Source: a virus. Taken from it: a DNA stretch of 64,000 nucleotides. Under the pieces are notes generated by a model, which worked only from the letters and a program-made list of their open reading frames with translations, made no database searches and had not been told where the DNA came from. The DNA is taken from the IMG/VR virus record IMGVR_UViG_3300034152_000556, positions 1 through 64,000 of that record, one strand, 5' to 3'. Made by a program: the position numbers and the translations under genes. Position 1 is the stretch's first letter, and the number at the start of each line of letters is the position of its first letter. Shown in pieces: positions 44,785-60,091 of the stretch.

Positions 44785-47486
44785 TGAATTCTTTCTCCTT
44801 TTAGTATTTTATCAAGTACTCCTGAATAACGTCCTTCGTATAGTATTCCTTGCAAGATACTTCGCTTTGGATTAGAAAACGCCATTGATAGAATCCAACT
44901 TTCTTGATTTGGTACTGATTGAACACTGTAGTAATCTGGTTCAATCTCATTTCGGTTGTCTAGCAATCGCCATTTTCTGTAATTCTTCCACATTAGCTGA
45001 GCTACAACACATTCATAATGAACATGATGTATATCGTTGTCATAGACATCAAACAACTCGTCTACAATTTCAGTGTATGTTTTTCCTTTAAATTTATGTA
45101 GTAAGGAAGACACGGTTGCGAGATCACCGATGATGTCTTGCTGTCTCATATCTTCACTTTGTCTTTCGCCTTTAATAATTGCTGATCCTGAGGTATGAAA
45201 TGTTCTCAAAACCAATTGTGTTGATCTTTCACCCAGCGTTTGTGCAGCTAATATGCCGATAAATCTACTGTTTAAACTTTTATACAAATCACCATAACAT
45301 TTTGTACATATCTTTGGTGATTTGCATAGAATAGGACTTCGAATTTCGATAGTTTTTCCAATTAAGGTGTCAATGTCATCTTTTGTTATCATAGAAAGAG
45401 TGCCATCTGGGTTTTTCATCCATCGCTTCACTAACATAGAGGCTTTCTTTCTTGTGCTGACATTAACTTCTAAGAAATCGGTTGTGCCACAATCATCCAA
45501 CGCTTCATCAAGTTGAAGGTTTGCTCCTGTAAATATCAATTTTCTTGATAGATAGCCAGATGTTCCCGTATTAAGAGCAACATCAAGAAGCCCTTTTCTA
45601 CAACCATAGGTTGAGTAGAAAAATTCTTCTTCAGTCAATCCTTCAATTAGATTGTGTTTAATTGGGAGCGGCAAAATCTCACCATCGAAATTAGAGATGA
45701 AACCGCGTGTTACAATAAGCTGCTTAACTTGATCCCAACTACCTCTAGCCCCAGACTCTATCATATATGCATATTTAAAGTGTGATTTCATCTCTTTGGT
45801 TAGAGCTTTATCTGAAATCGCCTGTAACTGTTCTCTTACATTTGGTTTGTTATAGAGACTATCTCTATACTCTTTAACTCCATCGAATATACAATCTGGT
45901 AGAGACATGGTACACCCAAATAGGGTTGAATATTTAAATCCGATTTTCTTAACATTGTCAAGAATATCCCTTGTAACTTCTTTGTTATATGTGTCTTTGA
46001 TTTCATTCAGAATTCTCATTAGAGCCTTCTTATCAACGACACCTTTTACCAACCTGAAGTCTTCGGGGAGACACTGATTAAATTCGGCTTCTCCTTGCGT
46101 TACCTTCTCACCTTTTAATAATACCTTATCTTCAGATTGATGAAATTCGTTCTTTGTCAAGAAATAAACACCAAGAATAACATCTTGGCTTGGCGTGGTA
46201 GTTAGTTTTTCATTTGCTGGGCTACTCAGGTTATTTGTAACCAATATCTTTTCTCGTATTTCTGTTTTTGCTTCTTCAGTAATTGGTATGTAAACTGCCA
46301 TTTGATCTCCATCAAAGTCTGCATTGAATGGGGGGCATACTAATGGGTGAATCTTGATCACATGCTCTAGACCAACTTTTATTTTGAACCCAAGCATACC
46401 CAAGCGATGTAGAGATGGTTGTCTATTAAGAACACAAACTTCATCTCTTACAACGTCTTGACAGACTTTAAATAGAACGGGAGATTGCATATCAATACAT
46501 TGTTCAATAAAGTCAATTGCTTTATTTAAAAGTTTGAACTTACCAAGCTCGATGATTCGTTTTGCAACAGGCAGTTTATAGATTTCTAGAATCATCAAAT
46601 ATGGCAACACACATTCGTCTAAGTTTAATGTTGGGTCTGGCGTGATTACAGCACGACCAGAGAAATCAATTCTTTTACCAAGAATGTTTCCACGAATCAG
46701 ACCTTCTTTTTTTGCCATCTTATCAAGTATCTGATCGTATAACTCTTTGACATTTTTCTGAAGTTGTTTGAAATAAGTGTAGTACAATTGTTTTTCTTTT
46801 TTGATATCAATGATCGTATCTAACATGATATCGCGTTTTGTTAAAATCTGGACATAATATCTATTGATTTTATCCATCAATTGTTTTTGCCCACCAGTTT
46901 TTGATGCTGGTCTTAGGTCGGGTGGCAATACTATGACTTTATCAATCAGAAGATTGTCTAGATTGTCTTTGATCACTTGCCATTCTTCGATCTCTTCTTC
47001 TAGATATAAGTCAGCAATCGTTTCTACCAATTTGTAGATTGCTTCAGTTCTTTCAAACTTTTCTGTTCCTTTTGGTATGTTATCGTCTGAGAGAGTCACA
47101 ACTGGGAACCCTTCACTGTCTAGATACAGTATGCTTTTCTCGTTTTTCATAAGATCGTCAAGTGCTCTCTTGATTAGTTTACCACCAAGATCGACTAGCA
47201 GATCATAGAAAAGTGGGTTGACAACGGATATGGGCATAATGATTTTTGCAAATCTCTTTCTTCTTTCGTCGCTATTTTCAATTTCGACTTTACAATCTGC
47301 ACATACCGTTCCAGCTTTCGATACTCCGTGATATTTACCACACTGACATGTGTAGTTTTTTAATGGGCCAAATATCTGTTCTGAGAATAAGCCTTCGGCG
47401 TGAAACTTCTTTTTTCCGAAAACTTTTACTGAAGTAACCTCTGGTAGTTCTTCGCAAAATTGTTGATAGTTTAAGATTTTTGGCAT
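44781..47486 (-). CDS. Phage RNA polymerase beta-prime subunit (RpoC-like)
   Basis: 901 residues behind AAAGG. The catalytic motif NADFDGDQMAVY (about 388-399) with its three Asp is intact. Other beta-prime landmarks: an N-terminal zinc ribbon CQCGKYHG...CADC (about 49-67), GKRIDFSGRAVI, RQPSLHRLG, ESGARGSWDQVKQL, RKGLLDVALNTGTSGYL (bridge helix/trigger loop side), a second Cys cluster CKSPKICTKCYG, and STQLVLRTFHTSG. It is much shorter than bacterial beta-prime (about 1400). The intact active site indicates a working polymerase that presumably reads phage promoters. Confidence 0.95.
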   Translation of the reverse strand: MPKILNYQQFCEELPEVTSVKVFGKKKFHAEGLFSEQIFGPLKNYTCQCGKYHGVSKAGTVCADCKVEIENSDERRKRFAKIIMPISVVNPLFYDLLVDLGGKLIKRALDDLMKNEKSILYLDSEGFPVVTLSDDNIPKGTEKFERTEAIYKLVETIADLYLEEEIEEWQVIKDNLDNLLIDKVIVLPPDLRPASKTGGQKQLMDKINRYYVQILTKRDIMLDTIIDIKKEKQLYYTYFKQLQKNVKELYDQILDKMAKKEGLIRGNILGKRIDFSGRAVITPDPTLNLDECVLPYLMILEIYKLPVAKRIIELGKFKLLNKAIDFIEQCIDMQSPVLFKVCQDVVRDEVCVLNRQPSLHRLGMLGFKIKVGLEHVIKIHPLVCPPFNADFDGDQMAVYIPITEEAKTEIREKILVTNNLSSPANEKLTTTPSQDVILGVYFLTKNEFHQSEDKVLLKGEKVTQGEAEFNQCLPEDFRLVKGVVDKKALMRILNEIKDTYNKEVTRDILDNVKKIGFKYSTLFGCTMSLPDCIFDGVKEYRDSLYNKPNVREQLQAISDKALTKEMKSHFKYAYMIESGARGSWDQVKQLIVTRGFISNFDGEILPLPIKHNLIEGLTEEEFFYSTYGCRKGLLDVALNTGTSGYLSRKLIFTGANLQLDEALDDCGTTDFLEVNVSTRKKASMLVKRWMKNPDGTLSMITKDDIDTLIGKTIEIRSPILCKSPKICTKCYGDLYKSLNSRFIGILAAQTLGERSTQLVLRTFHTSGSAIIKGERQSEDMRQQDIIGDLATVSSLLHKFKGKTYTEIVDELFDVYDNDIHHVHYECVVAQLMWKNYRKWRLLDNRNEIEPDYYSVQSVPNQESWILSMAFSNPKRSILQGILYEGRYSGVLDKILKGERIQ

Positions 47487-47492
47487 AGACCT

Positions 47493-47735
47493 TTACTCTC
47501 CCTCACTGAAAAATTCATACATCTTTTTTGCTAACATAGCCAAATGTTCTTTGACTCTATTTGATATGATTCTGTCTAAGTCTGGCATTAGTTCATTAAC
47601 AACATCTCTAATTTCATCTTGTGTTAGTTGTATTTCATTCTTCTTTATCGTTTCTTGAATCAGACTCGATAGATTCTCCTCTAGCATTTGTGCTAGAGTT
47701 TGCATTCTCTCGTCTTTCTCGTTCTTGTTCTGCAT
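47493..47735 (-). CDS. Small acidic helical protein upstream of RNA polymerase
   Basis: 80 residues, with AAAGG eight bases before the ATG; a second ATG ten codons later is an alternative. It is helical and acidic (QDEIRDVVNELMPDLDRII). It overlaps the previous gene by 101 bases in another frame and ends just before the ribosome site of the beta-prime gene. Position suggests a polymerase accessory factor, but this is inference. Confidence 0.5.
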   Translation of the reverse strand: MQNKNEKDERMQTLAQMLEENLSSLIQETIKKNEIQLTQDEIRDVVNELMPDLDRIISNRVKEHLAMLAKKMYEFFSEGE

Positions 47736-47948: not shown

Positions 47949-48290
47949 CTATGTGATTTTTGCATATTCTTTTATTTCATGCCACGGTGTAAAGTAGCAA
48001 GCGTCTAGATTAAATGTATAGATGACATTTTCTATCATCTTTTTAGTTGTTTCATTCAGTGGTAAATTCTGTAGGTTTTCAGGTAAACAAAGTTCCCTTG
48101 TTCGTGGGTCTGCATTAGGATGATTACCCAACAATTTAACTTCGTGGATTTTGTCAAAAAGTGTCTCAACGATATATCCATCTATTATCATAAATTCATC
48201 TAGCTCTATAATTTTATAATACTCGTTTTTGTATTTCATTCGTCCTGGCTTGATTTTTTTCTTCACTTTGATTCTTTTTCTTACTTGCAT
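47949..48290 (-). CDS. Small basic hypothetical protein coupled to E1 gene
   Basis: 113 residues from the ATG overlapping the stop of the E1-like gene (TGATG), with GGAG eight bases upstream. The N-terminus is strongly basic (VRKRIKVKKKIKPGR), followed by a beta-like region (YYKIIELDEFMIIDGYIVE) and a helical end. Coupling to the E1-like gene raises the chance that it is part of the conjugation cassette, for example a target or adaptor, but there is no direct evidence. Confidence 0.55.
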   Translation of the reverse strand: MQVRKRIKVKKKIKPGRMKYKNEYYKIIELDEFMIIDGYIVETLFDKIHEVKLLGNHPNADPRTRELCLPENLQNLPLNETTKKMIENVIYTFNLDACYFTPWHEIKEYAKIT

Positions 48291-49138
48291 CAAGCAGCTC
48301 CAGTTTCAGGTATTAAAACAATATACCCATGATTGTGTAACGATATCAGATATGATGGATATTCACATGGTAATGTTAATAGAGACGTTAGACTACTTAC
48401 CACATCATAACCAGTTTTCAAAGTGTTTTGTGGTATTTTTGTCTGTGATATCGGTTGTTCCTGACTCCCAACGAACACTTCAATATCACGTTTTCTATTT
48501 TCTTCAATGATTGGTATGATGTTAGTTGGTAAGTTTACGATCTGTTGCGCTTCAGCAGCGCATTCGTATACAACTTCACCATATTTCGGTTCGATTTTCT
48601 TTAGATAATCCAGTTCATATTTCTGAATGGATTGTGTTTTTATTAGCTGTCTGATGGTCTGATTAGAGACCAGCATTGATACAATAAAAGCAGCATTGCG
48701 AATGTCATCTTTTCTTAGATCAACAAGATATCTGCCGTCCTTCTGTTCTTTATATGATACATTCTTACGACAGTCAACGATAACATACCGAGAAGATATT
48801 GAAACTCTGACATCAATTATATCTTTTCGATCACAAATAATATCCCTGCAATCAAAAACGATATCGCCTTCTGGTATCTTAGTTTCACCTTCTATAAAAG
48901 TGTCATCAATAGATTTGACAACAACACCGGGATTTTGATGAATGATGATATCAGTTAAAGCTGTAACCTTTTTAACACCAACATCGATGGGTCGATATAT
49001 TGATGTTCCAAGGTTCTTCCACTCAACGGTATCAAAATCGATCAGGGTAAGTTCTTCAGTTTCGTCTAATCGAGATAAGCTATCCGCAAGAAAGCCACCA
49101 AGCGTTCCAAGTCCTGCAATTACAAAAGATTTGTACAC
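48290..49138 (-). CDS. ThiF/E1-type adenylating enzyme A
   Basis: 282 residues from a GTG start; GGAGG lies 12 bases upstream. Residues 8-14 (AGLGTLGG) form the nucleotide-binding Gly loop. LIDFDTVEWKNLG (32-44) is the E1 motif with Asp34, Asp36 and Asn42; the usual Arg after NL is missing at that place. FDCRDIICDRKD (95-106) stands where E1s have VDN...R. Cys123 in VDCRKN and ECAAEAQQ (about residues 198-205) are candidates for the active or metal Cys. E1/ThiF enzymes adenylate the C-terminus of a ubiquitin-like protein. A second E1 lies at 49679, with the Ubl gene between them. Confidence 0.8.
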   Translation of the reverse strand: MYKSFVIAGLGTLGGFLADSLSRLDETEELTLIDFDTVEWKNLGTSIYRPIDVGVKKVTALTDIIIHQNPGVVVKSIDDTFIEGETKIPEGDIVFDCRDIICDRKDIIDVRVSISSRYVIVDCRKNVSYKEQKDGRYLVDLRKDDIRNAAFIVSMLVSNQTIRQLIKTQSIQKYELDYLKKIEPKYGEVVYECAAEAQQIVNLPTNIIPIIEENRKRDIEVFVGSQEQPISQTKIPQNTLKTGYDVVSSLTSLLTLPCEYPSYLISLHNHGYIVLIPETGAA

Positions 49139-49172
49139 TGTTCAAAGCTTCCTCCGATCTGTTTGATGTTTG

Positions 49173-49198
49173 GGGGGATTCCCCTAAGAGAATCCCCC
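49173..49198 (-). terminator. Strong hairpin between Ubl and E1-A genes
   Basis: GGGGGATTC (49173-49181) pairs with GAATCCCCC (49190-49198), nine perfect pairs with an eight-base loop, in the gap after the Ubl gene. No T-run follows on the minus strand. It may partly stop transcription or protect the abundant Ubl message from decay, making E1-A less expressed than Ubl. Confidence 0.6.
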
Positions 49199-49217
49199 GT
49201 CCCGGTAATGACCGCTG

Positions 49218-49703
49218 TTAGCAGCCTTTCTTACCCGCTTTTTTCATGAATTCCAGTTTGTCCTGGTCTTGCAACGTATAGCTGTCGTTGACTTTGCTGC
49301 CATTGACAATGGCATCGGCTGCGGCGTCGATGTTCAGGACATCTCTCAGGAATGCTTTCACTTCACCAACAGGTTTTCCCACTACTGGGAAGTTTCCTGA
49401 AGAAGCACCACATGAAACTTGAATTGTGGTGCTGAAACCGGCTGGACCGGCGCTCTTGTCGGTTTGCACGGTTTTGAATCCTCCGTGCATTTCGCTGATG
49501 GGGCCTGAGCTTGGTGCCGCCACTGCGAAACCGGCTGGAGCGGCGCCCGGTTTGACCGGATTGGATGCTTGGTATTCCAGAATAGCGCTGATCACGACAT
49601 CCTTCGGTTTCTTGGTGATACCGGCGATGCCCATCTCGTGATAAGCCATTCTTTTCAGTTCTTTTGCTGACATGTCTTCTAGTTGTGCTCTTGAGTAACG
49701 CAT
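49218..49703 (-). CDS. SAP-like domain fused to a ubiquitin-like protein ending Gly-Cys
   Basis: 161 residues behind AAGGAG. Residues 5-45 (QLEDMSAKELKRMAYHEMG then ITKKPKDVVISAILEY) match the helix-extended-helix pattern of SAP/Rho-N domains, which bind nucleic acids. A Pro/Ala/Gly linker (46-90) leads to a beta-grasp-like part (91-161): strand TTIQVSCG, helix VGEVKAFLRDVLNI, strand AIVNGSKVND, LQDQDKLEFMKKAG. The last residues are KKGC. Gly160 is the likely conjugation point if the terminal Cys is removed. The gene looks clearly more GC-rich than its neighbours. Flanked by E1, JAB and E2-like genes. Confidence 0.78.
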   Translation of the reverse strand: MRYSRAQLEDMSAKELKRMAYHEMGIAGITKKPKDVVISAILEYQASNPVKPGAAPAGFAVAAPSSGPISEMHGGFKTVQTDKSAGPAGFSTTIQVSCGASSGNFPVVGKPVGEVKAFLRDVLNIDAAADAIVNGSKVNDSYTLQDQDKLEFMKKAGKKGC

Positions 49704-50419
49704 ACGTTTTCTCCTTCACTTACTTGCGTAGTTGTGGTGGTTTTTGGTACTTCTCTGACCTTGGCATGGCAAGCCATTTTCTCAATGTCAAAGTAAATTT
49801 CGGAAACATTAGTTTCCGCACGAATAACAACGTTGTAGAAAGCCCAGCACATTAGCGTAGCTACTCCTAGATTTGTAAAATACAGCTGGGGTTCTGATAC
49901 AGATAGTTCTTCACATGACATCTCATGTGGAGACTTATCATCGGGTTCATCGATTTCTGGATGGTATGCACAGAGGTTTGGTGTTAGATCGCGACCCCCC
50001 TTTCGTAGATATATTTGCACATTACCATCTATATAATCGTTCCCCCCTGAGATAAGACTTATATTGTTTAGGGTTGAACAATAGTCTGAGACGAGCTTGC
50101 GTGTCTTATGATTATCGACACACATAAAAATCATACAATCCTCTTTGATAATATCTTCAACGTTTTCTTCTGTGATATATTCTGTAACTGTATCAAATTC
50201 GATATTGTCAAAAATGGCTGAAAGCTCTCTCGCCTTGATGGTGGCTTTTTTTCCAAGATCGAAGAAGTCTTGTCTTTCGAAATTCTTGGCTTCATATGAA
50301 TCACCATCAACAAAGATAAATCTCGCTTGTTCTATGTCATGATTAAAATTGACATAACGAGCGAGTCGTTCGACTAGAATGGTTCCTATACCACCGAGTC
50401 CGATTACCACTATTTCCAT
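49679..50419 (-). CDS. ThiF/E1-type adenylating enzyme B (PRTRC ThiF-like)
   Basis: 246 residues behind AAGGAGA. A classic E1 layout: GLGGIG (7-12), FVDGDSYEAKNFERQDFF (37-53) with Asp38, Asp40, Asn46 and Arg49-Gln50, then CVDNHKTRK (100-108) with the adenylation-site Asp102. NLCAYHPEI (148-156) and MSCEEL supply Cys residues for thioester or zinc. The order resembles ThiF proteins of PRTRC cassettes. Its end overlaps the start of the Ubl gene by 25 bases, so E1-B and Ubl are made together. It is the better candidate of the two E1s for activating the Ubl. Confidence 0.87.
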   Translation of the reverse strand: MEIVVIGLGGIGTILVERLARYVNFNHDIEQARFIFVDGDSYEAKNFERQDFFDLGKKATIKARELSAIFDNIEFDTVTEYITEENVEDIIKEDCMIFMCVDNHKTRKLVSDYCSTLNNISLISGGNDYIDGNVQIYLRKGGRDLTPNLCAYHPEIDEPDDKSPHEMSCEELSVSEPQLYFTNLGVATLMCWAFYNVVIRAETNVSEIYFDIEKMACHAKVREVPKTTTTTQVSEGENVCVTQEHN

Positions 50420-50431
50420 TCACATTTCTCC

Positions 50432-51925
50432 TTATAGCTTTTTCAGGAATCGATTGAGACCAGATTGTAATCTCGTTCTTAGAGTATTTCCTTGAGTGGT
50501 CTTATCTATGATAACTTGTGGTACTTCTAACTCATGTGAGTCCACACCCGATTTATCAGTTAGAAAATCGCCTGAGTTGAGATTTTCATGAATCAATGCA
50601 AGTGGATCGGTGTAGTCATCTGGGTGTCTTACTTGAACCTCACCTTCTTCTTCTGCGCTTGGGTCATATTCATATAGGTCTTGACCGCCCCTTTCATCTA
50701 GGTCTTCTTGTACATCTTCTTCTGTTGCGTCGAGACTCATCAACATCATTCCAAATTCTAATGCTGATTTTCTGTAGAAACACGTTGAACATGTGTAGTG
50801 GATGCGGTAAAAAGCATCATCCTCCTCGACGCTTCCGGCTGGGTCATCATCGACCGGTTCCGTGCAGACTTCCAATGTCCATTCAAAGGCTTCGTCCCGA
50901 CAAGAGCAATCGCTGCATACGAATTCTCCGGTCGCGTCTTCTGCTTTTGGGTCCTTTCCTTTTGTTGTATCTAGTGCTTTCACTGGTGCTTTCTGTGGAT
51001 GAACTTCATCAAACCTTCGACCCCATTTTGATTCATACCAATCGAATAACCCATCGGGGTCGATTATGGGGTCAGCGCCTGATGCTGGATACATGCCACC
51101 ATAGTGCCCACCATATCCATAACCATAGCCATATGAATATTTGTAGGTTTTCTTTGTGACAAACCCAAGCCAGTTTTCATTGAACTGAATTTGATCTTCG
51201 GGAACTGTAAGCTTGAAACGACAATCCCATTTCCATTCGGTTTTCGGTTTTTCTTGCTTGTTCACTTTTGGCACAAGAGCACCATCTTTCCACACATAGA
51301 CTTGTGCGCCCGCTGACGGGTATGTGGTTACTTTTGATTTCTCTCGTGTCTGTGTGATACCTTCCATATAGTCAAGCGGGTCAACCTTGAATCGCTTTTC
51401 ATTTGCAACAATCGATGCTGTAATACTCACCTCTTCATCTGCAACATTACCGATTGTTATGTGCAAGCCATCAAAGTGTTTTTCATCAGCGATATCAACA
51501 CCAGAGTGAAAGGCTGAGAAGTTAGCGTGACTGTGAATGGTGCCAACTTTCAAATAACCATCAACAGTCAACTGGCGGTCATAGTCAATGGCTGCTGATG
51601 ATACCTCTTGTGTTGGTGGTAGCAGAATGAATAGTTTTGTTTTTGGGTCGTATAGAATCAGAACCATTGATTCTGATTTGTGGGTTGCATATACCCGTCT
51701 GAAGAATGTAACTGTGGTGGCAGTTTTGTCAGCTGGTATCTTTGGTAGATGAACCTTAGCCATTTGTTCGACGGGTTGGAGTGTTGCCACTCCACCGTCG
51801 ATTTTTGTAAGACTTTCCATGATACCAAGCTTTTTCTTCAGATAGAGTCCATCTTTTCCAACGATGTATAGAATATCATCGTTTGGCATCTCTTGTGTGC
51901 CATCATTGATAAAAACTCTAAACAT
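50432..51925 (-). CDS. JAMM/JAB metallopeptidase with C-terminal cysteine-rich part
   Basis: 497 residues behind GGAGG. GTIHSHANFSAFHSGVDIAD (129-147) contains the full JAMM motif: His131, His133, Ser141, Asp144. Glu85 (KSESMVLILYD) is the likely catalytic acid. The usual Pro after the second His is Ala. A Gly/Tyr run (264-277) and a Cys-rich region follow (Cys337, 340, 342, 354, 379, 382), probably a zinc module. JAB enzymes trim or remove ubiquitin-like proteins at their C-terminus; here it may trim the terminal Cys of the Ubl. The start overlaps the end of the E2-like gene by eight bases. Confidence 0.88.
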   Translation of the reverse strand: MFRVFINDGTQEMPNDDILYIVGKDGLYLKKKLGIMESLTKIDGGVATLQPVEQMAKVHLPKIPADKTATTVTFFRRVYATHKSESMVLILYDPKTKLFILLPPTQEVSSAAIDYDRQLTVDGYLKVGTIHSHANFSAFHSGVDIADEKHFDGLHITIGNVADEEVSITASIVANEKRFKVDPLDYMEGITQTREKSKVTTYPSAGAQVYVWKDGALVPKVNKQEKPKTEWKWDCRFKLTVPEDQIQFNENWLGFVTKKTYKYSYGYGYGYGGHYGGMYPASGADPIIDPDGLFDWYESKWGRRFDEVHPQKAPVKALDTTKGKDPKAEDATGEFVCSDCSCRDEAFEWTLEVCTEPVDDDPAGSVEEDDAFYRIHYTCSTCFYRKSALEFGMMLMSLDATEEDVQEDLDERGGQDLYEYDPSAEEEGEVQVRHPDDYTDPLALIHENLNSGDFLTDKSGVDSHELEVPQVIIDKTTQGNTLRTRLQSGLNRFLKKL

Positions 51926-54551
51926 TCATTATCCTCCGAGAATCTACCGGATAGAATTCACTCATTTTCTCGTTTTGGGTGAACATACCTCTGAAGTTTG
52001 GTAATCCGGGTTGTAGGTCAACAATCAATTCTTTCTCTGACATTCTTGGTGGAAGAATGCCATGCGGTAGCGCGTAACTCTTAAACGTCTCATCAAACAC
52101 AAAATAATCATGTGCAAGATTTAGAACTGAACCTAGAGATGCACAGCGCGAATCACCAAGCTTGTTCTGAAAATACATATAATCATAATCTGACTTATAT
52201 GGACCTCCAGTGATTTCAAAGACATCTCCTGGTTGTATTTTGATTTTGTTCATATCAAGTGGCACATGCTGCGTCTTTTGCCATGTCTTTGTACCCATTC
52301 GCATCTTTGTGAAGTTTGCAATCACATCTTCAGCCCAAAGAGTCAAACCATTTGAGCAAAGTACAAGGGGTTCGTCGCAGCCTGTATCTGTGATAAATCC
52401 AATGATGATATTAACATCAGTTTTCGGGAAGTTTTGAATATCATCAACTTTTGCTTTTATTTTCATGCCTGTTTGTAGGGTCTTGTATTTTGTTTTAACG
52501 TGTCTTACTGCCCCCACATCTATATAGCTTTTGTTGCCTTTGATATAGACTTTTTCTGATAACTTTCCGTCTTTGTCTTGCAGAATAAACGAAACAGTTT
52601 GCAATTCATCGTTGACTTTGAATCCCATGATAGTTTTTATCTTCAACATTTCAAGCGGCGTTTCCCAGTTTGCACAGACCACTCGATCACCAACTTCAAA
52701 TTTAATATCTCCATCGAAGCTTGGTATGTTGAGTTTGCTACCATCTATCCATTGTCGTGTAATGCTTGTGAAAGGCACATCTGCTAAACCAGCATTGTGA
52801 TTGATGTAAAAACCATCTGGTGAAGCATATGCAACAAGAACTTCTTTTTTGTGTGAATCTGTTACCGATTTAATAGCTCTTAGCTTATAGTATCGGTTGC
52901 CAACTCTGAATGGCATATTATCTATTTTTTTCAACTTGTTTAGTTGTAGATATGTCACGGTATCTTGATTTTTTGGATCTAGAATATCAATACCACCGTT
53001 TTCATTTTTGAAACGATAAATTAAATCACCAGATGGTGAAACATCTAAATCAACAAATTCTAGATTTTTGAAAGTGCTGACAATTGATGTTGATGTTAAA
53101 GTGTCGTAGTGTTTTCCAGCGTCAAATGAGAGGCAATACTTTTTTCCTGGTTTTATCAAGCGACCGAAAAGTTTTGGTTTTTCAACATTGTACTTCTCGA
53201 TCTCAAGACCATCAACAGCGGTAAAGTACTCATCACCTAAGCGAAACTCAGGTACGCCATTGAACTCTCGAATTGATATTAGCTTTTTAAATAGGGGTTT
53301 CTGGCTTACTGCGGTTTTGACAGTAACGATATCACCAATAGTTAGCTTCTTACCATTGTATTTGATATTTGCTTTTTCTTGCCTTGTCTTCATTTCTTCG
53401 AGAATTTTATCTTTGAGTTTCTTCGTAAGCTGTATCATGCGATATTCTCCATTTGGTTTTTCATATCGCATGTGAGATATATTGGGTGTTCTTGCAGATG
53501 ATAGAAATGATACCACTCTAACTTCTTGATTTTTATGAGTGAAGGTGTCTCCCGGATATAGAAGAAACATCCCATTGCTATCAAGATGTACAACTGCCGA
53601 TGCGTTTTCTTTCAATGGCTGTGGTTTTGTATCATCGGTGATTTCATCTGATGAGAAACTAGTTTTGAAGAATGTTGTAATTCTTGATATATCAGCAGAT
53701 ACGCTAGAATTTAGACTTATATTACGACCACTATTAAGCGTGTATTTGATAGCTGCACCGAGAGTTGCTTTTTTTGCCAACAGCCACCTGACTTTAAATA
53801 TAAACATTGGGTCGTTGATGGTTCGATGTGCCCACTCTATCGGATTTGAGACATACGGTGTCTTTGCTTGATGATATCGATTTGGGTTATACATATAGTC
53901 CGAGTTAAATTCGTTGTTCCAGAAAAAGTGCATATAATTTTGAATGAACACTGCAACGTTTGGATAGTTCGAACCCATACCATCACCTAGACAGCACCAT
54001 AGACCATCGTTTAGATTTGGAAGATTGGCATAAAACATCGGGTCACCCATGCCCATTACTGGCGCTGGTCTGAAATAAACGGTAGAACCACGATAACGGT
54101 TGTTTGAATCAACAATAACAATATGGATGATATATGGAAATGCAAAGTTGATTGTATGTAGTTCTCGTGAGCCGCCTTTGCTATCGAAGTGTTTATCAAT
54201 CACATCTTTCCACTCATCATACATTCCACGGTCTCGTGCGTCTTTAATTTCATTTGCAAAGTTTCTACGCATGTTGACTGTTCTAATTGCTGGTTGTTCT
54301 TCGATAACAACACACTTATTTCCGTGCATATCTTCATATATGTAGCGACAGTTCATGGGAAGGATACCATCGTAGGTAAACTCTCTTGTTGTTAGCCTCT
54401 TCTGTAATTGGTTCAGAAGAATATTTGTTGGAATTATACCTTTCGTAATTTTTGCTTTTGGGTCTTTCCAACTTTCATCTCTATATTTATCTGGAATTTC
54501 GCTGCCGTATAGAACGGCGTACTTCTTGTTCAGCCGAATCTCTTCGATCAT
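51918..54551 (-). CDS. E2-like domain fused to a long array of small beta-barrels
   Basis: 877 residues. Residues about 130-220 resemble the E2-like PRTRC protein B: strands HTINFAFPYIIHIVIVD and TVYFRPAPV, then LPNLNDGLWCCLGDG with Cys186/Cys187 at the catalytic place (as in ...DGxxCxG), then VFIQNYMHFFWNNEFNSD. From about 300 on there are several repeating SH3/KOW-like beta units, each near the pattern 'x-x-GD-x-(V/F)-x-(V/I)' (PGDTFTHKNQEVRVVSF, IGDIVTVKTAV, VGDRVVCANW, PGDVFEITGG). The gene precedes JAB with overlap. It would accept the Ubl from an E1; the barrels may bind targets. Confidence 0.72.
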   Translation of the reverse strand: MIEEIRLNKKYAVLYGSEIPDKYRDESWKDPKAKITKGIIPTNILLNQLQKRLTTREFTYDGILPMNCRYIYEDMHGNKCVVIEEQPAIRTVNMRRNFANEIKDARDRGMYDEWKDVIDKHFDSKGGSRELHTINFAFPYIIHIVIVDSNNRYRGSTVYFRPAPVMGMGDPMFYANLPNLNDGLWCCLGDGMGSNYPNVAVFIQNYMHFFWNNEFNSDYMYNPNRYHQAKTPYVSNPIEWAHRTINDPMFIFKVRWLLAKKATLGAAIKYTLNSGRNISLNSSVSADISRITTFFKTSFSSDEITDDTKPQPLKENASAVVHLDSNGMFLLYPGDTFTHKNQEVRVVSFLSSARTPNISHMRYEKPNGEYRMIQLTKKLKDKILEEMKTRQEKANIKYNGKKLTIGDIVTVKTAVSQKPLFKKLISIREFNGVPEFRLGDEYFTAVDGLEIEKYNVEKPKLFGRLIKPGKKYCLSFDAGKHYDTLTSTSIVSTFKNLEFVDLDVSPSGDLIYRFKNENGGIDILDPKNQDTVTYLQLNKLKKIDNMPFRVGNRYYKLRAIKSVTDSHKKEVLVAYASPDGFYINHNAGLADVPFTSITRQWIDGSKLNIPSFDGDIKFEVGDRVVCANWETPLEMLKIKTIMGFKVNDELQTVSFILQDKDGKLSEKVYIKGNKSYIDVGAVRHVKTKYKTLQTGMKIKAKVDDIQNFPKTDVNIIIGFITDTGCDEPLVLCSNGLTLWAEDVIANFTKMRMGTKTWQKTQHVPLDMNKIKIQPGDVFEITGGPYKSDYDYMYFQNKLGDSRCASLGSVLNLAHDYFVFDETFKSYALPHGILPPRMSEKELIVDLQPGLPNFRGMFTQNEKMSEFYPVDSRRIMNV

Positions 54552-54554
54552 TCT

Positions 54555-54929
54555 TTATTCTCCTCGAAAGTATTTCACAAGTTTCGCATACTCCGTTAGA
54601 ATGTTCTTTGCCTTTGCCTCTTTAATATCCCAAGATTTCTTCGGAAATTTTTGAGTTTCTCGTGGGTCAGATTTTATCGCAGCCTTTGGTATTGACCAAA
54701 GTCTTGCAACATAATGACCTATGCTTTCGCGTTCTAATGTTAGATAACACAGTTCGCTATCATAACGACCTGGAACTTCTAAAGTGAGAATGACATTTGG
54801 CCCTTGCGGGGCATATTTTATATTCATATGAGGATGTTCTTCTTTTTCAATTAGGTCGCACATCTCTCTTACTTTATCAAGTTCCTCATCGTATGGTGTT
54901 CCTGCAATGAGTTTTCCTAGTGTTTTCAT
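54555..54929 (-). CDS. Unknown protein next to the conjugation cassette
   Basis: 124 residues from the ATG preceded by AAGGAAAC, overlapping the previous stop as ATGA; 15 codons upstream are less likely to be used. A helical N-terminus leads to a compact beta part (NVILTLEVPGRYDSELCYLTLE) and a basic helical tail. No family recognised. It lies between the SH3-like gene and the E2-like gene in the same operon. Confidence 0.55.
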   Translation of the reverse strand: MKTLGKLIAGTPYDEELDKVREMCDLIEKEEHPHMNIKYAPQGPNVILTLEVPGRYDSELCYLTLERESIGHYVARLWSIPKAAIKSDPRETQKFPKKSWDIKEAKAKNILTEYAKLVKYFRGE

Positions 54930-55234
54930 GCTGGTTTCCTTATTCTGTATCTTACCTTGTCTAACTCTACCCAATCGGCTTGCTTAAATGGAATAGAACG
55001 CCATTCTTGTTTTTCCAAATCAAAGCAATGAATTATTCCATTTTTACGCATTAAATTGACGATTTTCTTAATATTTACAGATTTCGGATGTTGCTTTTTT
55101 GGAATTTGAGTAAAGTCTAAGGTGCATACCATTACTCGAATTGTTCCGTCCTTTTTCTTGAATTTGACAACAGCTTCTTTTGCTTTAGAAAGCTTTTCCC
55201 AAAAATCAAGAGCAGATGTGATTTCATCAGCCAT
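54926..55234 (-). CDS. Small SH3-like beta-barrel protein (WYL_2/DUF2693-like)
   Basis: 102 residues behind GGAAGGAGG. VVKFKKKDGTIRVMVCTLDF (about 22-41) followed by IPKKQHP and IIHCFDLEKQEWRSIPF matches small phage proteins of the WYL_2 (DUF2693) type, which have an Sm/SH3-like barrel and may bind nucleic acid. It overlaps the radical SAM gene's end by eight bases and the next gene by ATGA. Confidence 0.65.
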   Translation of the reverse strand: MADEITSALDFWEKLSKAKEAVVKFKKKDGTIRVMVCTLDFTQIPKKQHPKSVNIKKIVNLMRKNGIIHCFDLEKQEWRSIPFKQADWVELDKVRYRIRKPA

Positions 55235-56267
55235 CTTTCTTACCCTCCCTTACATCTAGGTGTACTAACCCTGCAACATCATCAGTCATGCTCATAAGCT
55301 GGCATGTATGATTACAGAGTTGACAATAATTTCTTTTATCTCGTATCAGTGCTTCTCTCACTTGATATGATACCTCTCTCCTTTGAACAAACAGATTCAT
55401 TAGAGAGTTATACTTTGGAGTATGTACGCCTCTTATACGCAGACAAAGTCGAATTGAACCATCAGCATCTATGGTAATATTATGAATACCTTGCTCTAAG
55501 AAACAATCTAACTTTGCTGGTAAAATATCAAAAATCTTTTCTAATAGATAATGCTTCATATGAACATTACATTTTCGGTCATCTAGTATTTTTACAAGTT
55601 CACCAGCGAGTCGCAGACTTGGTCTTACCAACTGTTCTGTACCATAAACATTTGAAAAGTCATACCAGCTGTTTTTTGCGATATCGACAAATGTCAAATC
55701 GCTACAGATACCCAAGTCTGAAAGTTTCCTGATAAACCTATGTAGATCAGAAATATCATGTTTCATTACGGTTACTTCAGCAACAAGGTCTTTGATTTTC
55801 GTGTGTTCTTTCAAAACTACTAAATTTGCTAGACCTTCTCGACTCTTTTTTGCTCGATCTGAATTATCAGTTGCTAAAACAGGGTCGATGGATGCTGTGA
55901 AACCTTTTATCTCATCGACACTTCTTAATAGATTGGTGATTCTATCTTGAATGCCTCTTGAGTTGTTGCTTATAATTGTATAATGCATTCTGTTTTCATT
56001 GCAGAAGTTTATTATATCTGGTAAGTCATTTCTTAGTAATGGTTCGCCGCCATAGAAGATATGAAAACAATCTGGGTTGTGCATTTTAAATTGCAACAAA
56101 GCCATCTTGATATAATCCAGCGACATTTCATTTTTATGATAATAAGATGAGATTGGATAGTCACCTTGACCGCCTCCACCGGCTATGATAGCACAGTACT
56201 TGCAGTTTAAATTGCAACGGCGAGTTAGTATCCAATTCACAATTTTGATTCGTTCTTTATTTTCCAA
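55227..56267 (-). CDS. Radical SAM enzyme with C-terminal cysteine group
   Basis: 346 residues from a TTG start; GAGGT stands about eight bases upstream, and the start lies inside the end of the gp46 gene. Cys18-x3-Cys22-x2-Cys25 (RRCNLNCKYC) is the radical SAM motif. IFYGGEPLLRNDL matches the GGEP SAM-binding motif of the SPASM/peptide-modifying branch. The end has CLRIRG and YCQLCNHTCQL, likely an auxiliary cluster. GGEP-type radical SAM enzymes often modify peptides or proteins. It is upstream of the conjugation cassette in the same operon; a functional link is possible but unproven. Confidence 0.85.
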   Translation of the reverse strand: MENKERIKIVNWILTRRCNLNCKYCAIIAGGGGQGDYPISSYYHKNEMSLDYIKMALLQFKMHNPDCFHIFYGGEPLLRNDLPDIINFCNENRMHYTIISNNSRGIQDRITNLLRSVDEIKGFTASIDPVLATDNSDRAKKSREGLANLVVLKEHTKIKDLVAEVTVMKHDISDLHRFIRKLSDLGICSDLTFVDIAKNSWYDFSNVYGTEQLVRPSLRLAGELVKILDDRKCNVHMKHYLLEKIFDILPAKLDCFLEQGIHNITIDADGSIRLCLRIRGVHTPKYNSLMNLFVQRREVSYQVREALIRDKRNYCQLCNHTCQLMSMTDDVAGLVHLDVREGKKDG

Positions 56268-58446
56268 GTTCTAGTACCTCATCTGCTTCGAGTTGATCAA
56301 CATGTCTGTGTGATATAATTAAAATATGTTTATCTTTAACAACACTTCTAAGAACTTTAGAAACATAACCAATATTCTCGTCGTCAAGACTGTCGAATAT
56401 TTCATCAAACAACAAGATGTTATATCGAACATCTTGAACACGTTCTTGAAGATCACCAAGCGTTAAAATTGTTGCAATATCAACCAATCTAGTTTGCCCA
56501 CCTGAAAATTGAACTCTTGAGTTTGCTTTGGTTTCTGTGTCAAGAACATTTACAGAAATCTTGTCTCGAAATTCACCAGCCTTAGTTGCTGATAAAGTAT
56601 CAAATGAGACTACGTATCTCCCATCTGACATTCTATCAAGATATTCCATAACGCGCTCATTCATAAAAGGTATTGATTCATCAATGAGCATTGATGGTAT
56701 ACCTGTTGGTGAAAACCCAGTTTTCCAAACTTCTGCAATCTTTTGTTGTCTGACATATGTTTCAAGTTGTTCTTTAAAAGTTTTAACATTGTTTCTGTAA
56801 TTATCTTTTTGCATCTTTAATGTTTGTAGATTTGATTTATCAAATTCTCGATTTCGTTCTCTCTTGAGCCTTTCTTCAAGGTTTTCGATTTCGTTTTTGC
56901 ATCTTTCTATATAAAGAGTTTTTGTATTGATATCATCTTTGAGTTTTGTAAGCTCTTCTTTTTGTGCTAAAAACTCGTTATAAGATTTCTCAAGCTCTTC
57001 TTTTTCAGCTTGATATTTAGCCTTAATATCTTGTTCAGTTTTTGTTGCTATATCTGCAACCTGTGTAAGAGCTGTTTCCAAACGTTGTTTGTAAACGTTA
57101 ATCATTTGATTATATGATTCTTCAGCATGTGCAAGTTGTGATTCTTGGTGTCGTTTTTCAGAGTCGAGTTGTTTGAGGACTTCTTTTAACTTTTCTCTGA
57201 TTCCACTCACCATGTGCTCTTTCTGTTTCATTTGTTCAGTAAGATTTTGTATTTCGCTGTCACACGCTTGTATTTTTTCTTGTAGATGTGATATTGCGTC
57301 ATCGTCTATATCACGTTTACAAGTTGGACAGGTTTTAACATCTGAATTTAGAACTTTGGTGAGCTCCTCTTTCATATTGTTCAAAGATAAAACTTGTCCA
57401 TGCAGATATGATGCTTCTGATTCAATTTTGCCTTGCTTGCCTTCTGCAACATTTTTTTGTGTGAGAATTTCACGCTGAATAGAATTGATCATATCTAAGA
57501 ACTTGCTTTTTTCTTTTGAAAATTTTTCGTATTCCTCTCTTTCCTTAGCAGATGCCGCCGCTTTAAGTTCACTCTCTTTTTTGTCTCGATGCACTGCTAA
57601 AGAATCTAAAGCTTGTTTAGCTTTTTGTGACAACTCATTAAATGTGTTTTCAATATTTTTCAAATCGTCAACAAGCTTAGTAAGTATTTTTTCTTGAGCC
57701 AAAAGATTCTTCAGAGACTCTTCTCTTAGTTTCAAAGACTCTTTCTCATCGCTAATCTCATCTTCTAAAGTTTCTATCAACTTTGTCTGTTCTTGATAAA
57801 AAGTGGTTTCGCGAATTCGCTCTCTGGTAAGTTGATTTTCAATCTCTTCAATGCGACCTTCTGTTACTTTAATTTCAGAATTTTTGTCAGCTATAAGATT
57901 TTTAATATCTTTCAGAGCGTCTCGAACAAGATCATATCTTGCTTCCCATTTTTGGAATGAAAGAATCTTTCTGAAGATGTCCTTCTTCTCAGAGTCAATC
58001 AAGTCTGTAAAGAAATCTTTAACCTTTTGGCCGAACAATCTGGTGTTCATAAATAGATTCTTTGGACTTACCAAGGTTTCAATTTCAGGTACTACATCTT
58101 TGTGACCTTTTTTTATGTCTTTTCCGTTCTTCTTTAATATAACGGTGTTTCCAATGCGAGTGTATTTTACATAACGAGTGACATTGTATTGGTCTTCGTT
58201 GATGATAAAATCTAACTCAACCTTACAGTTTTTACCTATTACATTATTTACAACATCTTCGTTTCTAGCCCCTTTGCTCGTTATACCATATAGAGCAAAT
58301 GGTATGGCATCAAACATCATGGTTTTGCCGACACCATTGGGACCATTGATCATCGTCAGTTTTCCATTTTCAAACTGCAATTCCATCGGGTCAATATATG
58401 GCCCAAAATTCTCCATTCTAACCCGCTGAAAGGTTATGTCTTTCAT
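56257..58446 (-). CDS. gp46/SbcC/Rad50-like recombination ATPase
   Basis: 729 residues from the ATG behind GGAGGGAGA; 15 upstream codons are unlikely to be used. Walker A GPNGVGKT (35-42), long coiled coils broken by a zinc hook CPTC (about 371-374), the signature SGGQTRLVDIA, and Walker B ILLFDEIFDSLD near the C-terminus. With gp47 it forms the nuclease-ATPase that resects DNA ends in phage recombination and helps degrade host DNA. The start overlaps the gp47-like gene by 29 bases. Length is larger than T4 gp46 (560), nearer to bacterial SbcC-like minimal forms. Confidence 0.92.
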   Translation of the reverse strand: MKDITFQRVRMENFGPYIDPMELQFENGKLTMINGPNGVGKTMMFDAIPFALYGITSKGARNEDVVNNVIGKNCKVELDFIINEDQYNVTRYVKYTRIGNTVILKKNGKDIKKGHKDVVPEIETLVSPKNLFMNTRLFGQKVKDFFTDLIDSEKKDIFRKILSFQKWEARYDLVRDALKDIKNLIADKNSEIKVTEGRIEEIENQLTRERIRETTFYQEQTKLIETLEDEISDEKESLKLREESLKNLLAQEKILTKLVDDLKNIENTFNELSQKAKQALDSLAVHRDKKESELKAAASAKEREEYEKFSKEKSKFLDMINSIQREILTQKNVAEGKQGKIESEASYLHGQVLSLNNMKEELTKVLNSDVKTCPTCKRDIDDDAISHLQEKIQACDSEIQNLTEQMKQKEHMVSGIREKLKEVLKQLDSEKRHQESQLAHAEESYNQMINVYKQRLETALTQVADIATKTEQDIKAKYQAEKEELEKSYNEFLAQKEELTKLKDDINTKTLYIERCKNEIENLEERLKRERNREFDKSNLQTLKMQKDNYRNNVKTFKEQLETYVRQQKIAEVWKTGFSPTGIPSMLIDESIPFMNERVMEYLDRMSDGRYVVSFDTLSATKAGEFRDKISVNVLDTETKANSRVQFSGGQTRLVDIATILTLGDLQERVQDVRYNILLFDEIFDSLDDENIGYVSKVLRSVVKDKHILIISHRHVDQLEADEVLELGK

Positions 58447-59479
58447 TATCTTCTCCCTCCAGCTTTCTGATGAATTCAATATACTCATCATGCTCTTCTT
58501 CTGGTATTTCTTGACCAGCTAGATACCGTCTCAAGATTTCTTCGTCTGTCATCGAAGAGCTAAGACCGCGATCTGTTATATCTTTGTCTGTTCTATCTAC
58601 AATTATAAATTCTTTTTCCAGCTTGTCTGTGTCAATCGTTTCTTTCTTTATGATCTTAACAAGATGCCCCTCTTGTCGAAGCCTTTCTGCTTTCTGAATT
58701 GTTTCTTTTATATTCTTTTTTGTCAGATCAAGCTGTACGTGTTTACGATAACCAGATGTTGGTATGCTTTCTACCTCTAAGGTTTCAGAATCAACAACGA
58801 GAAATCTTTTTTCATCATCTTTTTCTCCCCAATCCAATTGAATTGGTGAACCAGCATAAAATATTCTGACATTTTCATTGCTGACTTCTTGTGGTTTATG
58901 GTAGTGACCAAGCAACACCAGATCATAATTGTTTTCTAGATGTCGAATGCTTATATCGGAAATAATACTTAAACCAGAATTTACAACGGCTTCGTTCAAA
59001 CCAAAGTGCGATATAAGAATATTAGCTTTAGCCTTTTTAATAGTAACTGCCATATCTGAGCTGTAAGGTACTATTAGAATAGACGGTCCTGCATCGATTT
59101 TGGCTATAGACCCACACATTCCGTGTGTTGCATTTATCTCAACAGAGTCATGATGATCTAGAAATTCAAGTGCTGAGATTGCATCTTTGCCTTTATGCGA
59201 AAGGTCATGATTACCAGTTACAACCCAAAACTTCAATTGACGGTAATCTTCTAAAAAGTCTAACAACAATTTCTGTGCAAGACTGTAGATTATTGACTTA
59301 TTGTGCATGATGTCGCCACCAATAACCATGACCCCTATATCATTTTTAACACAGTGATCTGCAATATTTCTCAATGCTTGCATAATACTATGTAATCTAT
59401 CTGGTAGACCCGTCATTTCATTTATGGGGTCTTGACCGTACCTAGAAAGGTGTAGATCAGCTGTAAAAGCAAATTTCAT
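58418..59479 (-). CDS. gp47/SbcD/Mre11-like nuclease
   Basis: 353 residues. Metallophosphoesterase motifs in order: TADLHLS (Asp8, His10), GGDIMHNK (about 53-60), VTGNHDLS (about 87-94), and VLLGHYHKPQ (about 193-202). This is the usual Mre11/gp47 layout, with a C-terminal domain for the ATPase partner and an acidic tail. It works with the gp46-like product encoded next. The ATG overlaps the stop of the prepilin-like gene (ATGA) and the GGAGAAC ahead serves as ribosome site. Confidence 0.92.
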   Translation of the reverse strand: MKFAFTADLHLSRYGQDPINEMTGLPDRLHSIMQALRNIADHCVKNDIGVMVIGGDIMHNKSIIYSLAQKLLLDFLEDYRQLKFWVVTGNHDLSHKGKDAISALEFLDHHDSVEINATHGMCGSIAKIDAGPSILIVPYSSDMAVTIKKAKANILISHFGLNEAVVNSGLSIISDISIRHLENNYDLVLLGHYHKPQEVSNENVRIFYAGSPIQLDWGEKDDEKRFLVVDSETLEVESIPTSGYRKHVQLDLTKKNIKETIQKAERLRQEGHLVKIIKKETIDTDKLEKEFIIVDRTDKDITDRGLSSSMTDEEILRRYLAGQEIPEEEHDEYIEFIRKLEGEDNERHNLSAG

Positions 59480-59655
59480 AGTTGTTCTCCGTTTGAAGAT
59501 TTTTCGACGGTTTCTTCAATTTGAATTCTTTCTTTTTCTGAATCTGTTGAATCAACTACTTTCAGGAAGATGTTAAGCGCCAATACTGCTAGAAGAGCAG
59601 TAATTGCGATAGAAACCATTAATTCGATCAGAGTAAATCCTTTACTTTTTTTCAT
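59476..59655 (-). CDS. Type IV prepilin-like short protein
   Basis: 59 residues from the ATG that is seven bases after GAGGAG; another ATG two codons earlier is too close to that site. The sequence KKSKGFTLIELMVSIAITA is the class III signal of type IV prepilins and pseudopilins: basic leader, Gly6, then Phe and Glu11 (position +5), then a hydrophobic helix to about residue 34. Only about 25 charged residues follow, so there is no globular pilin head. A host prepilin peptidase could cut it after Gly6. It may interfere with host pili or secretion. It is coupled to the gp47 gene by ATGA. Confidence 0.75.
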   Translation of the reverse strand: MKKSKGFTLIELMVSIAITALLAVLALNIFLKVVDSTDSEKERIQIEETVEKSSNGEQL

Positions 59656-60091
59656 TTTCATTCTCCTCAAAATGTAAACATCTATCGATTGTTCGTAAGT
59701 GAGTTTTTATATAAATTTCTGATAACTTATCTGTGTTGACACCAATCATTTCACCTGATTTGTCATATTGCCCAAATTCATTAATTGTGAAACCTTCTTT
59801 TTCAATTAGATTGTATGCAGCATAGTATGCCATCTCCTCAAGATGATCACCTTCTAGTTGCCACACTCTTTCGCATTTCTTTAGTCTTGCTAAAATTTTA
59901 AATACCATATTTGTGAATGCTCGGGTGTCTATGTCATTATTCAAAACTTTTTCAATTTCGTTTTCTTCAAGCATATCACTTGATTTAAGAGCATTTATCA
60001 TTTCTTCATCTGTTGGTTCAAACCAATCTGGTATGAACACTAAATATGATGTTGATGAGCTGTTGGTCACAAAATCTCCTTTAATTTTCAT
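59642..60091 (-). CDS. DFVTNSSS-motif protein (paralogue 2)
   Basis: 149 residues from the ATG in the TTATGA overlap with the preceding gene; 12 upstream codons are not needed. It starts MKIKGDFVTNSSSTSYLVFI and continues PDWFEPTDEEMINALKSS, very like paralogue 3 (PDNWQVPSDEDIMKA) next door, so these two are tandem duplicates. The rest is helical and acidic. Its 3' end overlaps the prepilin-like gene's leader by 14 bases. Function unknown. Confidence 0.7.
   Translation of the reverse strand: MKIKGDFVTNSSSTSYLVFIPDWFEPTDEEMINALKSSDMLEENEIEKVLNNDIDTRAFTNMVFKILARLKKCERVWQLEGDHLEEMAYYAAYNLIEKEGFTINEFGQYDKSGEMIGVNTDKLSEIYIKTHLRTIDRCLHFEENENEKK

What the first reader, a model, noticed from the sequence alone, without database searches (positions are those of the whole stretch)
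48290..54551. Complete phage-encoded ubiquitin-like conjugation cassette
Five adjacent genes encode an E2-like protein (51918), JAMM peptidase (50432), E1-B (49679), Ubl with SAP-like domain (49218) and E1-A (48290). The order of motifs in each is intact. Known prokaryotic relatives include PRTRC cassettes of plasmids, CBASS Cap2/Cap3 and Bil systems. I know of no described phage pathway with two E1s, a nucleic-acid-binding Ubl and a barrel-array E2. It may tag host or phage DNA-bound proteins, for example the phage RNA polymerase encoded next to it.
Basis: partly seen in the sequence, partly recalled or inferred. Interest (0 to 1): 0.95.

Follow-up and report, generated by a model that had tools for sequence, protein, structure and literature searches.

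The report
Phage ubiquitin-like tagging cassette beside RNA polymerase
A large group of tailed phages carries, next to its own RNA polymerase genes, a complete set of genes resembling the machinery that eukaryotic cells use to attach ubiquitin to proteins; it is a phage version of a poorly studied bacterial plasmid system, and its target protein is unknown.

Summary
The five genes are real. On the minus strand they run E2 (Prok-E2_D type) – JAMM peptidase – E1-B – Rho_N/SAP+Ubl – E1-A, then the phage RNA polymerase beta' and beta genes. The record is a 108.7-kb IMG/VR myovirus-like record. Fifty-six other IMG/VR loci carry relatives: 49 of the 52 that hold all five genes keep the exact order, and all 49 are followed by beta'–beta. 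Searching by RNA polymerase instead, 69 of 72 assessable loci carry E1-B upstream. Catalytic residues are invariant: JAMM E/HxH/S/D, E1-B Cys and ATP site, E2 Cys. The Ubl tail (A/S)GxKG is kept, and 16 of 45 distinct Ubls carry 1-5 extra residues, implying JAMM maturation. Related phages and plasmids carry polyubiquitin-like Ubl genes (3-6 units). Reversible Ubl conjugation is well supported by inference. RNA polymerase as the target is only a hypothesis.

The parts
51918..54551 (-). E2-like protein, 877 aa: N-terminal Prok-E2_D-type UBC domain (about residues 36-270; predicted catalytic C187, N216xD218 motif), then an array of SH3/Tudor/KOW-like barrels
50432..51925 (-). JAMM metallopeptidase, 497 aa; E85, H131xH133, S141, D144 invariant in 50 of 50 family members; C-terminal CxxC pair; PRTRC_A homologue
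49679..50419 (-). E1-B, canonical ThiF/MoeB-type activating enzyme, 246 aa; GxGGxG, R49Q50, K58, D102 and candidate catalytic C169 invariant
49218..49703 (-). Ubl, 161 aa: Rho_N/SAP three-helix domain (7-48), linker, ThiS/MoaD-like beta-grasp domain (about 92-155), tail AGKKG plus one extra Cys
48290..49138 (-). E1-A, second E1-like protein, 282 aa; Rossmann domain without the ATP-site arginine or a catalytic Cys; C-terminal bb-a-bb domain ending in conserved ETGAA
47949..48293 (-). conserved small gene between E1-A and RNA polymerase (X114), unknown function
47493..47735 (-). conserved small gene (x80), unknown function
44781..47486 (-). phage multisubunit RNA polymerase beta' subunit, 901 aa
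41791..44784 (-). phage multisubunit RNA polymerase beta subunit, 997 aa
54555..54974 (-). conserved small neighbour (d139), unknown function
54926..55234 (-). WYL_2 Sm-like barrel protein, conserved neighbour
55227..56267 (-). radical-SAM-like protein (CxxxCxxC seen in sequence), conserved neighbour
56257..58491 (-). SbcC-like nuclease subunit, conserved neighbour

Best explanation
This is a phage-encoded, reversible ubiquitin-like conjugation pathway of the PRTRC / E2-family-D type. The JAMM peptidase trims the Ubl precursor to the invariant Gly of AGxKG. E1-B adenylates that Gly and takes it on C169. The Ubl passes to C187 of the E2, which attaches it to substrate lysines, and the JAMM removes it. 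The Rho_N/SAP domain on the Ubl and the Tudor/KOW-like barrels on the E2 probably bring the reaction to nucleic-acid-bound complexes, with the phage's own transcription machinery as the first candidate. E1-A is probably a non-catalytic partner of E1-B, like the inactive half of heterodimeric E1s. Shown here: the genes, folds or homology, catalytic residues, conserved linkage and purifying selection. Inferred: every catalytic step, the role of E1-A, and the substrate.
For: Homology and folds of all five proteins. Invariant catalytic residues over about 50 loci. Fixed order in 49 of 52 loci, always followed by beta'-beta; 69 of 72 when found through RNA polymerase. Mantel r 0.63-0.87 with beta' and median dN/dS 0.11-0.15, from few pairs for E2 and JAMM. 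Ubl tail ends at Gly or carries a short variable extension. Related cassettes encode head-to-tail Ubl precursors, which need a peptidase to give monomers. Barrel array resembles SETDB1 Tudor, with weaker Spt5 matches, and a weak NusG profile match. Rho_N domain in 33 of 37 Ubls.
Against: No biochemistry. Foldseek hits for the E2 model are dominated by the barrels, so the UBC fold rests on topology and profile homology. The downstream His described for family-D E2s is Asn216 here. The tail is KG rather than GG. E1-A has no proven role. A physical link to RNA polymerase genes does not show that it is the substrate, and 3 of 72 loci lack E1-B near the polymerase.
Confidence: 0.72

Rival explanations
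1. Sulfur-carrier or small-molecule/peptide maturation system: E1-B thiocarboxylates a ThiS-like Ubl, which supplies sulfur, perhaps with the neighbouring radical-SAM protein.
For: The Ubl domain is ThiS/MoaD-like; E1 relatives include MoeB, ThiF, MccB and PaaA; a radical-SAM-like gene is a conserved neighbour.
Against: A dedicated E2 with invariant Cys, a JAMM, a tail that needs trimming, and tandem Ubl precursors in relatives; no rhodanese or cysteine desulfurase seen among the neighbours.
Confidence: 0.1
2. Same pathway, but the substrate is a virion or assembly protein, so that tagging controls particle assembly rather than transcription.
For: In Salmonella phage Arash the E2-like and E1-like genes are annotated 'structural protein' (basis of that annotation unknown); BilABCD is known to tag phage tails (from own knowledge).
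Against: In this clade the cassette sits with RNA polymerase, not with tail or head genes; Rho_N and KOW-like domains suit nucleoprotein targets.
Confidence: 0.25
3. Counter-defence: the JAMM or the whole cassette interferes with host CBASS (Cap2/Cap3) or Bil-type tagging.
For: The E1-A Rossmann segment matches CBASS E1-E2 models (5.5e-10); phage infection is the natural setting.
Against: The cassette has its own Ubl, E2 and E1 and is a nearly universal part of this clade's RNA polymerase locus, unlike variable counter-defence genes; no PADLOC match for the Ubl, JAMM or E2.
Confidence: 0.1

Closest known systems
PRTRC system of plasmids (TIGR03735/36/37/38) = operon type 6d of Iyer et al. 2006 (PMC1779556), Prok-E2_D
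   Same: Ubl with AGxKG-type tail, family-D E2, JAMM with an N-terminal domain, ThiF-type E1; same order E2-JAMM-E1 (B-A-ThiF) as Azonexus plasmid L018
   Different: Ubl carries a Rho_N/SAP domain; E2 is extended by a barrel array; second E1-like protein; no PRTRC E, F or ParB match in the record; linked to phage RNA polymerase; Asn instead of the downstream His in the E2
Phage/plasmid cassettes in KLEB27-3, Arash, Vibrio phages D69/D181/D148, B. velezensis pAD3
   Same: JAMM + E1 + family-D E2 + Ubl ending GxKG
   Different: No Rho_N, no barrels, no E1-A seen; Ubl often in 3-4 tandem units; not checked for linkage to RNA polymerase
BilABCD antiphage system
   Same: Ubl + E2 + JAMM + E1; pre-Ubl trimmed by the DUB (PMC11354881)
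   Different: BilB has a CEHH-type site and BilD fuses inactive and active adenylation domains (PMC11354881); Bil is a host defence system, this is phage-borne with two separate E1-like proteins
CBASS Cap2/Cap3
   Same: E1/E2 chemistry and JAMM; E1-A fold closest to Cap2, MoeB and ThiF
   Different: Cap2 is an E1-E2 fusion that conjugates a CD-NTase; no CD-NTase seen here
Heterodimeric eukaryotic E1s (SAE1/UBA2, NAE1/UBA3)
   Same: One complete and one incomplete E1-like subunit on separate polypeptides (PMC12355090)
   Different: Complex formation untested; E1-A keeps the ATP-site Lys and Asp

Membership tests
PRTRC system | PRTRC_A (JAMM) above curated cut-off | tested here: not met
   41.2 bits against cut-off 101.8, E 1.3e-10: homologous but outside the family as defined
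PRTRC system | PRTRC_ThiF above curated cut-off | tested here: not met
   34 bits against 144.75, E 1.8e-8
PRTRC system | PRTRC_B (E2) | tested here: inconclusive
   no hit for the window protein; 11 of 40 relatives, best E 4.9e-4, cut-off status not shown
PRTRC system | PRTRC_C (Ubl) | tested here: not met
   no NCBIfam hit for the window Ubl; the Ubls of KLEB27-3 and L084 do exceed the cut-off
PRTRC system | proteins E, F and ParB in the same replicon | tested here: not met
   no match in the 108.7-kb record, which may be incomplete
PRTRC system | gene order B-A-ThiF | tested here: met
   E2-JAMM-E1-B in window and relatives; Azonexus E-C-F-B-A-ThiF
Prokaryotic E2 family D (PF14460) | profile homology with invariant Cys | tested here: met
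   3 of 6 close relatives match, best 3.1e-6; profile-profile 97.8%, 6.5e-13 to a group whose pAD3 member scores 44.1 against cut-off 25; C187 in 46 of 46
Prokaryotic E2 family D (PF14460) | conserved His downstream of the Cys (PMC1779556) | tested here: not met
   Asn216 in 46 of 46; N-x-D also in the seven phage/plasmid E2s aligned
JAMM/MPN+ peptidase | E, HxH, S, D metal and catalytic residues | tested here: met
   invariant in 50 of 50
E1-like activating enzyme (E1-B) | ATP-site Gly loop, Arg, Lys, Asp and a candidate thioester Cys | tested here: met
   R49, K58, D102, C169 invariant in 49 of 49
E1-like activating enzyme (E1-A) | complete E1 active site | tested here: not met
   Arg replaced by Asn/Thr; no conserved Cys outside the Rossmann DCRD motif
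Ubiquitin-like beta-grasp protein | beta-grasp fold and conserved C-terminal Gly | tested here: met
   ThiS match in 26 of 37 relatives and above cut-off in L068; predicted bb-a-bb in L066; GxKG tail
BilABCD / CBASS | E1-E2 fusion, CD-NTase or Bil-type E2/E1 | tested here: not met
   PADLOC: only Rossmann-segment matches of the E1s to E1-E2 models; BilB CEHH motif absent by inspection
Ubl conjugation pathway | covalent Ubl-substrate isopeptide | not testable with these tools
   needs biochemistry

The most novel reading that the evidence does not exclude
A large clade of phages uses a complete, self-encoded ubiquitin-like pathway to tag and untag its own RNA polymerase or other nucleoprotein complexes during infection. 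Distant phages and plasmids run the same chemistry with true polyubiquitin-style genes, so a regulatory ubiquitin-like system with an encoded E2 and DUB would be a core part of virus biology in prokaryotes.
Probability: 0.3. Interest if true: 0.95.

Novelty: new variant of a known kind. Interest (0 to 1): 0.8.

Why it matters
Bacterial ubiquitin-like conjugation has been studied mostly as a defence against phages; here phages carry such a system as a near-constant part of their transcription locus. It gives a concrete set of targets (E1-B C169, E2 C187, JAMM HxH, Ubl Gly) for testing whether viruses of prokaryotes regulate their own proteins by reversible Ubl tagging. It also offers the uncharacterised PRTRC type a setting in which a function may be found. 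The polyubiquitin-like genes in cultured phages make the idea testable in isolates.

Tried and rejected
A direct E2 hit by HMM scan of the window protein alone failed; family-level scans were needed. Profile comparison with three PRTRC_B-type proteins (two proteobacterial, one Clostridioides) was weak (24-37% probability); it became strong with the phage/Firmicutes group. The idea that the E1-A C-terminus is a second Ubl was not supported by sequence (hhalign E 0.89) and rests on predicted bb-a-bb topology only. A mixed Ubl/E1-A alignment misaligned and was discarded. The apparent Ubl-E1A fusion in L044 has a Ubl that has lost its tail, so it was not used as evidence. The scan for beta' with a single sequence gave only two loci; an alignment gave 80. 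A genome-contig scan gave MAG contigs under mixed archaeal and bacterial names, at least some probably phage contigs, so the host is not assigned. Foldseek did not return a UBC-only entry among the top 50 for the full E2 model because the barrels dominate. Paper searches found no description of a phage cassette of this kind in the held library; most subscription-journal papers are not held.
Full report
Observation. The window lies in a 108,708-base IMG/VR virus record with terminase, contractile tail sheath, baseplate wedge and multisubunit RNA polymerase genes, so it is a tailed, myovirus-like phage. E2/JAMM, E1-B/Ubl and E1-A/X114 overlap by a few bases, as in a translationally coupled operon, and the same-strand run continues into RNA polymerase beta' and beta.

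Identity of the parts. E1-A and E1-B match ThiF PF00899. The JAMM protein matches PRTRC_A and E1-B matches PRTRC_ThiF, both with significant E-values but below the curated cut-offs. The Ubl has an N-terminal Rho_N domain (above cut-off in the window, found in 33 of 37 relatives) and a ThiS-like C-terminal domain (26 of 37 relatives). The E2 is recognisable only at family level: Prok-E2_D in 3 of 6 close relatives (best 3.1e-6) and a profile-profile match of 97.8%, E 6.5e-13, over 149 columns to E2_D-type proteins of phages and plasmids, whose pAD3 member exceeds the Pfam cut-off.

Catalytic residues. Across about 50 loci, JAMM E85, H131, H133, S141 and D144 are invariant. E1-B G7, G9, G10, G12, R49, K58, D102 and C169 are invariant. 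E2 C187 and N216 are invariant in all 46 sequences covering them. R49, K58 and D102 correspond to MoeB Arg73, Lys86 and Asp130, which PMC12355090 names in the MoeB-MoaD-AMP complex (residue matching by motif, from own knowledge). In E1-A the arginine is replaced by Asn or Thr in most members, and the only invariant Cys lies in the DCRD motif of the Rossmann fold, as in MoeB DCTD; it therefore lacks a recognisable thioester cysteine.

Structure predictions. The 877-aa E2 model (40-sequence alignment, mean pLDDT 81.8, pTM 0.55) shows helix - four strands - Cys loop - helices over residues 99-252, as in UBC folds, followed by many small barrels. Foldseek ranks SETDB1 triple-Tudor structures first (probability 0.91-1.0); Spt5-containing elongation complexes and the E2/E3 hybrid UBE2O appear at low probability. 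A profile search gives a weak NusG match (E 0.009). The Ubl was modelled in L066 as a read-through with E1-A, the TAA being read as a residue. It shows three helices (5-49), a disordered linker and bb-a-bb (95-155); E1-A shows the E1 Rossmann domain plus a C-terminal helix and bb-a-bb ending at the conserved ETGAA tail. Foldseek places E1-A with Cap2, MoeB, ThiF and UBA5.

Conservation. A first scan found six relatives at 53-60% E1-B identity, all with the cassette. A profile scan gave 56 loci: 52 have all five genes by HMM (two of these are E1-B counted as E1-A, one a Ubl/E1-A fusion), 49 in exactly the same order and strand, and all 49 followed by beta'-beta. Because those were found through E1-B, I repeated the search through RNA polymerase beta': 72 of 80 loci have enough upstream sequence to assess, 69 carry E1-B and 62 all five genes; 3 lack E1-B, and none was found elsewhere in those three records, which may be fragments. 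The two sets overlap. Pairwise distances of all five proteins follow those of beta' (Mantel r 0.63-0.87, permutation maxima 0.28-0.36). Median dN/dS is 0.11-0.15, with only 1-2 pairs available for E2 and JAMM. The cassette is therefore an old, largely vertically kept, selected part of this phage group's RNA polymerase locus.

Ubl tail. In 45 distinct Ubls the tail is (A/S)GxKG. In 29 the protein ends at that Gly; in 16 it continues by 1-5 residues, 11 of them a single Cys as in the window. A conserved Gly followed by variable residues is what a precursor trimmed by a peptidase looks like. The Azonexus PRTRC_C tail is the same (AAGTKG followed by an extension).

Polyubiquitin-like relatives. 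Cassettes related through E1 and JAMM encode tandem Ubls: four units in Bacillus phage KLEB27-3 and in B. velezensis plasmid pAD3, three in Vibrio phage D69 and in IMG/VR L068, six in L083-L086, four in L087, L098 and L103. Prok_Ub matches 4, 3 and 6 stretches of the KLEB27-3, pAD3 and L084 proteins; PRTRC_C exceeds its cut-off in KLEB27-3 and L084; ThiS exceeds its cut-off in L068. The D69 units have no family match and are called Ubl from the tail motif and context. In KLEB27-3, L084 and L098, units are 90-100% identical in protein but 70-85% in DNA, so protein identity is kept by selection. Tandem polyUbl genes were known before from operon type 6e with two to three units (PMC1779556); here they occur with a family-D E2.

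Mechanism. The anatomy fits trim (JAMM) - activate (E1-B C169) - transfer (E2 C187) - conjugate - remove (JAMM). I put about 0.72 on reversible Ubl conjugation of this general form. The Rho_N domain on the modifier, the Tudor/KOW-like barrels on the E2 and the constant RNA polymerase neighbours point to nucleic-acid-bound substrates, with transcription complexes first; this step is inference, about 0.25-0.3. E1-A as an inactive E1 partner is inference by analogy to SAE1/UBA2 and to the two adenylation domains of BilD (PMC12355090, PMC11354881).

Comparison with the known. The core corresponds to operon type 6d of Iyer et al. 2006 (PMC1779556) and to PRTRC; the order E2-JAMM-E1 equals B-A-ThiF in an Azonexus plasmid. 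The window set fails the curated PRTRC cut-offs, and its record has no E, F or ParB match. It differs from 6d in the Asn in place of the downstream E2 His, the Rho_N domain, the barrels and E1-A. PADLOC gives only Rossmann-segment matches to CBASS E1-E2. Phage-borne members of the wider group are present in databases under names such as PRTRC system protein A (ME3) and PRTRC_A domain-containing protein (KLEB27-3), but I found no paper in the held library that describes such a phage pathway.

Verdict. New variant of a known kind, with high interest because the target and role are open and testable.

Noticed in passing
L008:2709-3416, L014:1880-2617, L011:3334-4125, L068:6933-7565, L084:4424-5503, L087, L098, L103: Polyubiquitin-like genes: 3-6 head-to-tail Ubl units, each ending GxKG, last one followed by a short tail; in several, units nearly identical in protein but 15-30% different in DNA.
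   Followed up: partly
L009:107-307 (Salmonella phage Arash): Unannotated 66-aa Ubl-like ORF ending RRTGTKG upstream of E2-JAMM-E1; the annotated CDS 102-320 reads a different frame. The E2-like and E1-like genes there are annotated 'structural protein'.
   Followed up: partly
L012:2602-6654 and crAss-like phages incl. DAC15 (L079): 81 phage records, many crAss-like, match the E1-like gene of crAss-like phage cr128_1; in cr128_1 it follows a JAMM-like metalloprotease. An upstream 201-aa protein has a possible Ubl-like N-terminus and a 435-aa protein a CxG motif; possible divergent Ubl cassette.
   Followed up: partly
L077:1869-4892 (record position 85869-88892): A second beta'-like RNA polymerase gene in the same phage record, possibly a virion polymerase subunit.
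   Followed up: no
L072, L073, L074, L075: Divergent cassettes on MAG contigs labelled Uhrbacteria and others: Ubl tail ends GDKA instead of GxKG, and three of the four have two long E2-like genes in a row.
   Followed up: no
L080:1738-3056 (Acinetobacter phage ME3): 294-aa gene beside 'PRTRC system protein A'; an ME3 protein of the same length was a structural hit to the window E2 model, so ME3 may also carry a cassette.
   Followed up: no
L002:11331-11588 and equivalents in L003, L005-L007: A conserved 77-88-aa protein between Ubl and E1-A (FSYxGGxPKLQI) in several relatives, absent from that place in the window; looked PC4-like to the eye, not tested.
   Followed up: no
window 14235-14750, 59642-60127, 60088-60474: Several small proteins share the N-terminus MKIKxDFVTNSSSxS(F/Y)L with otherwise different sequences.
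   Followed up: no
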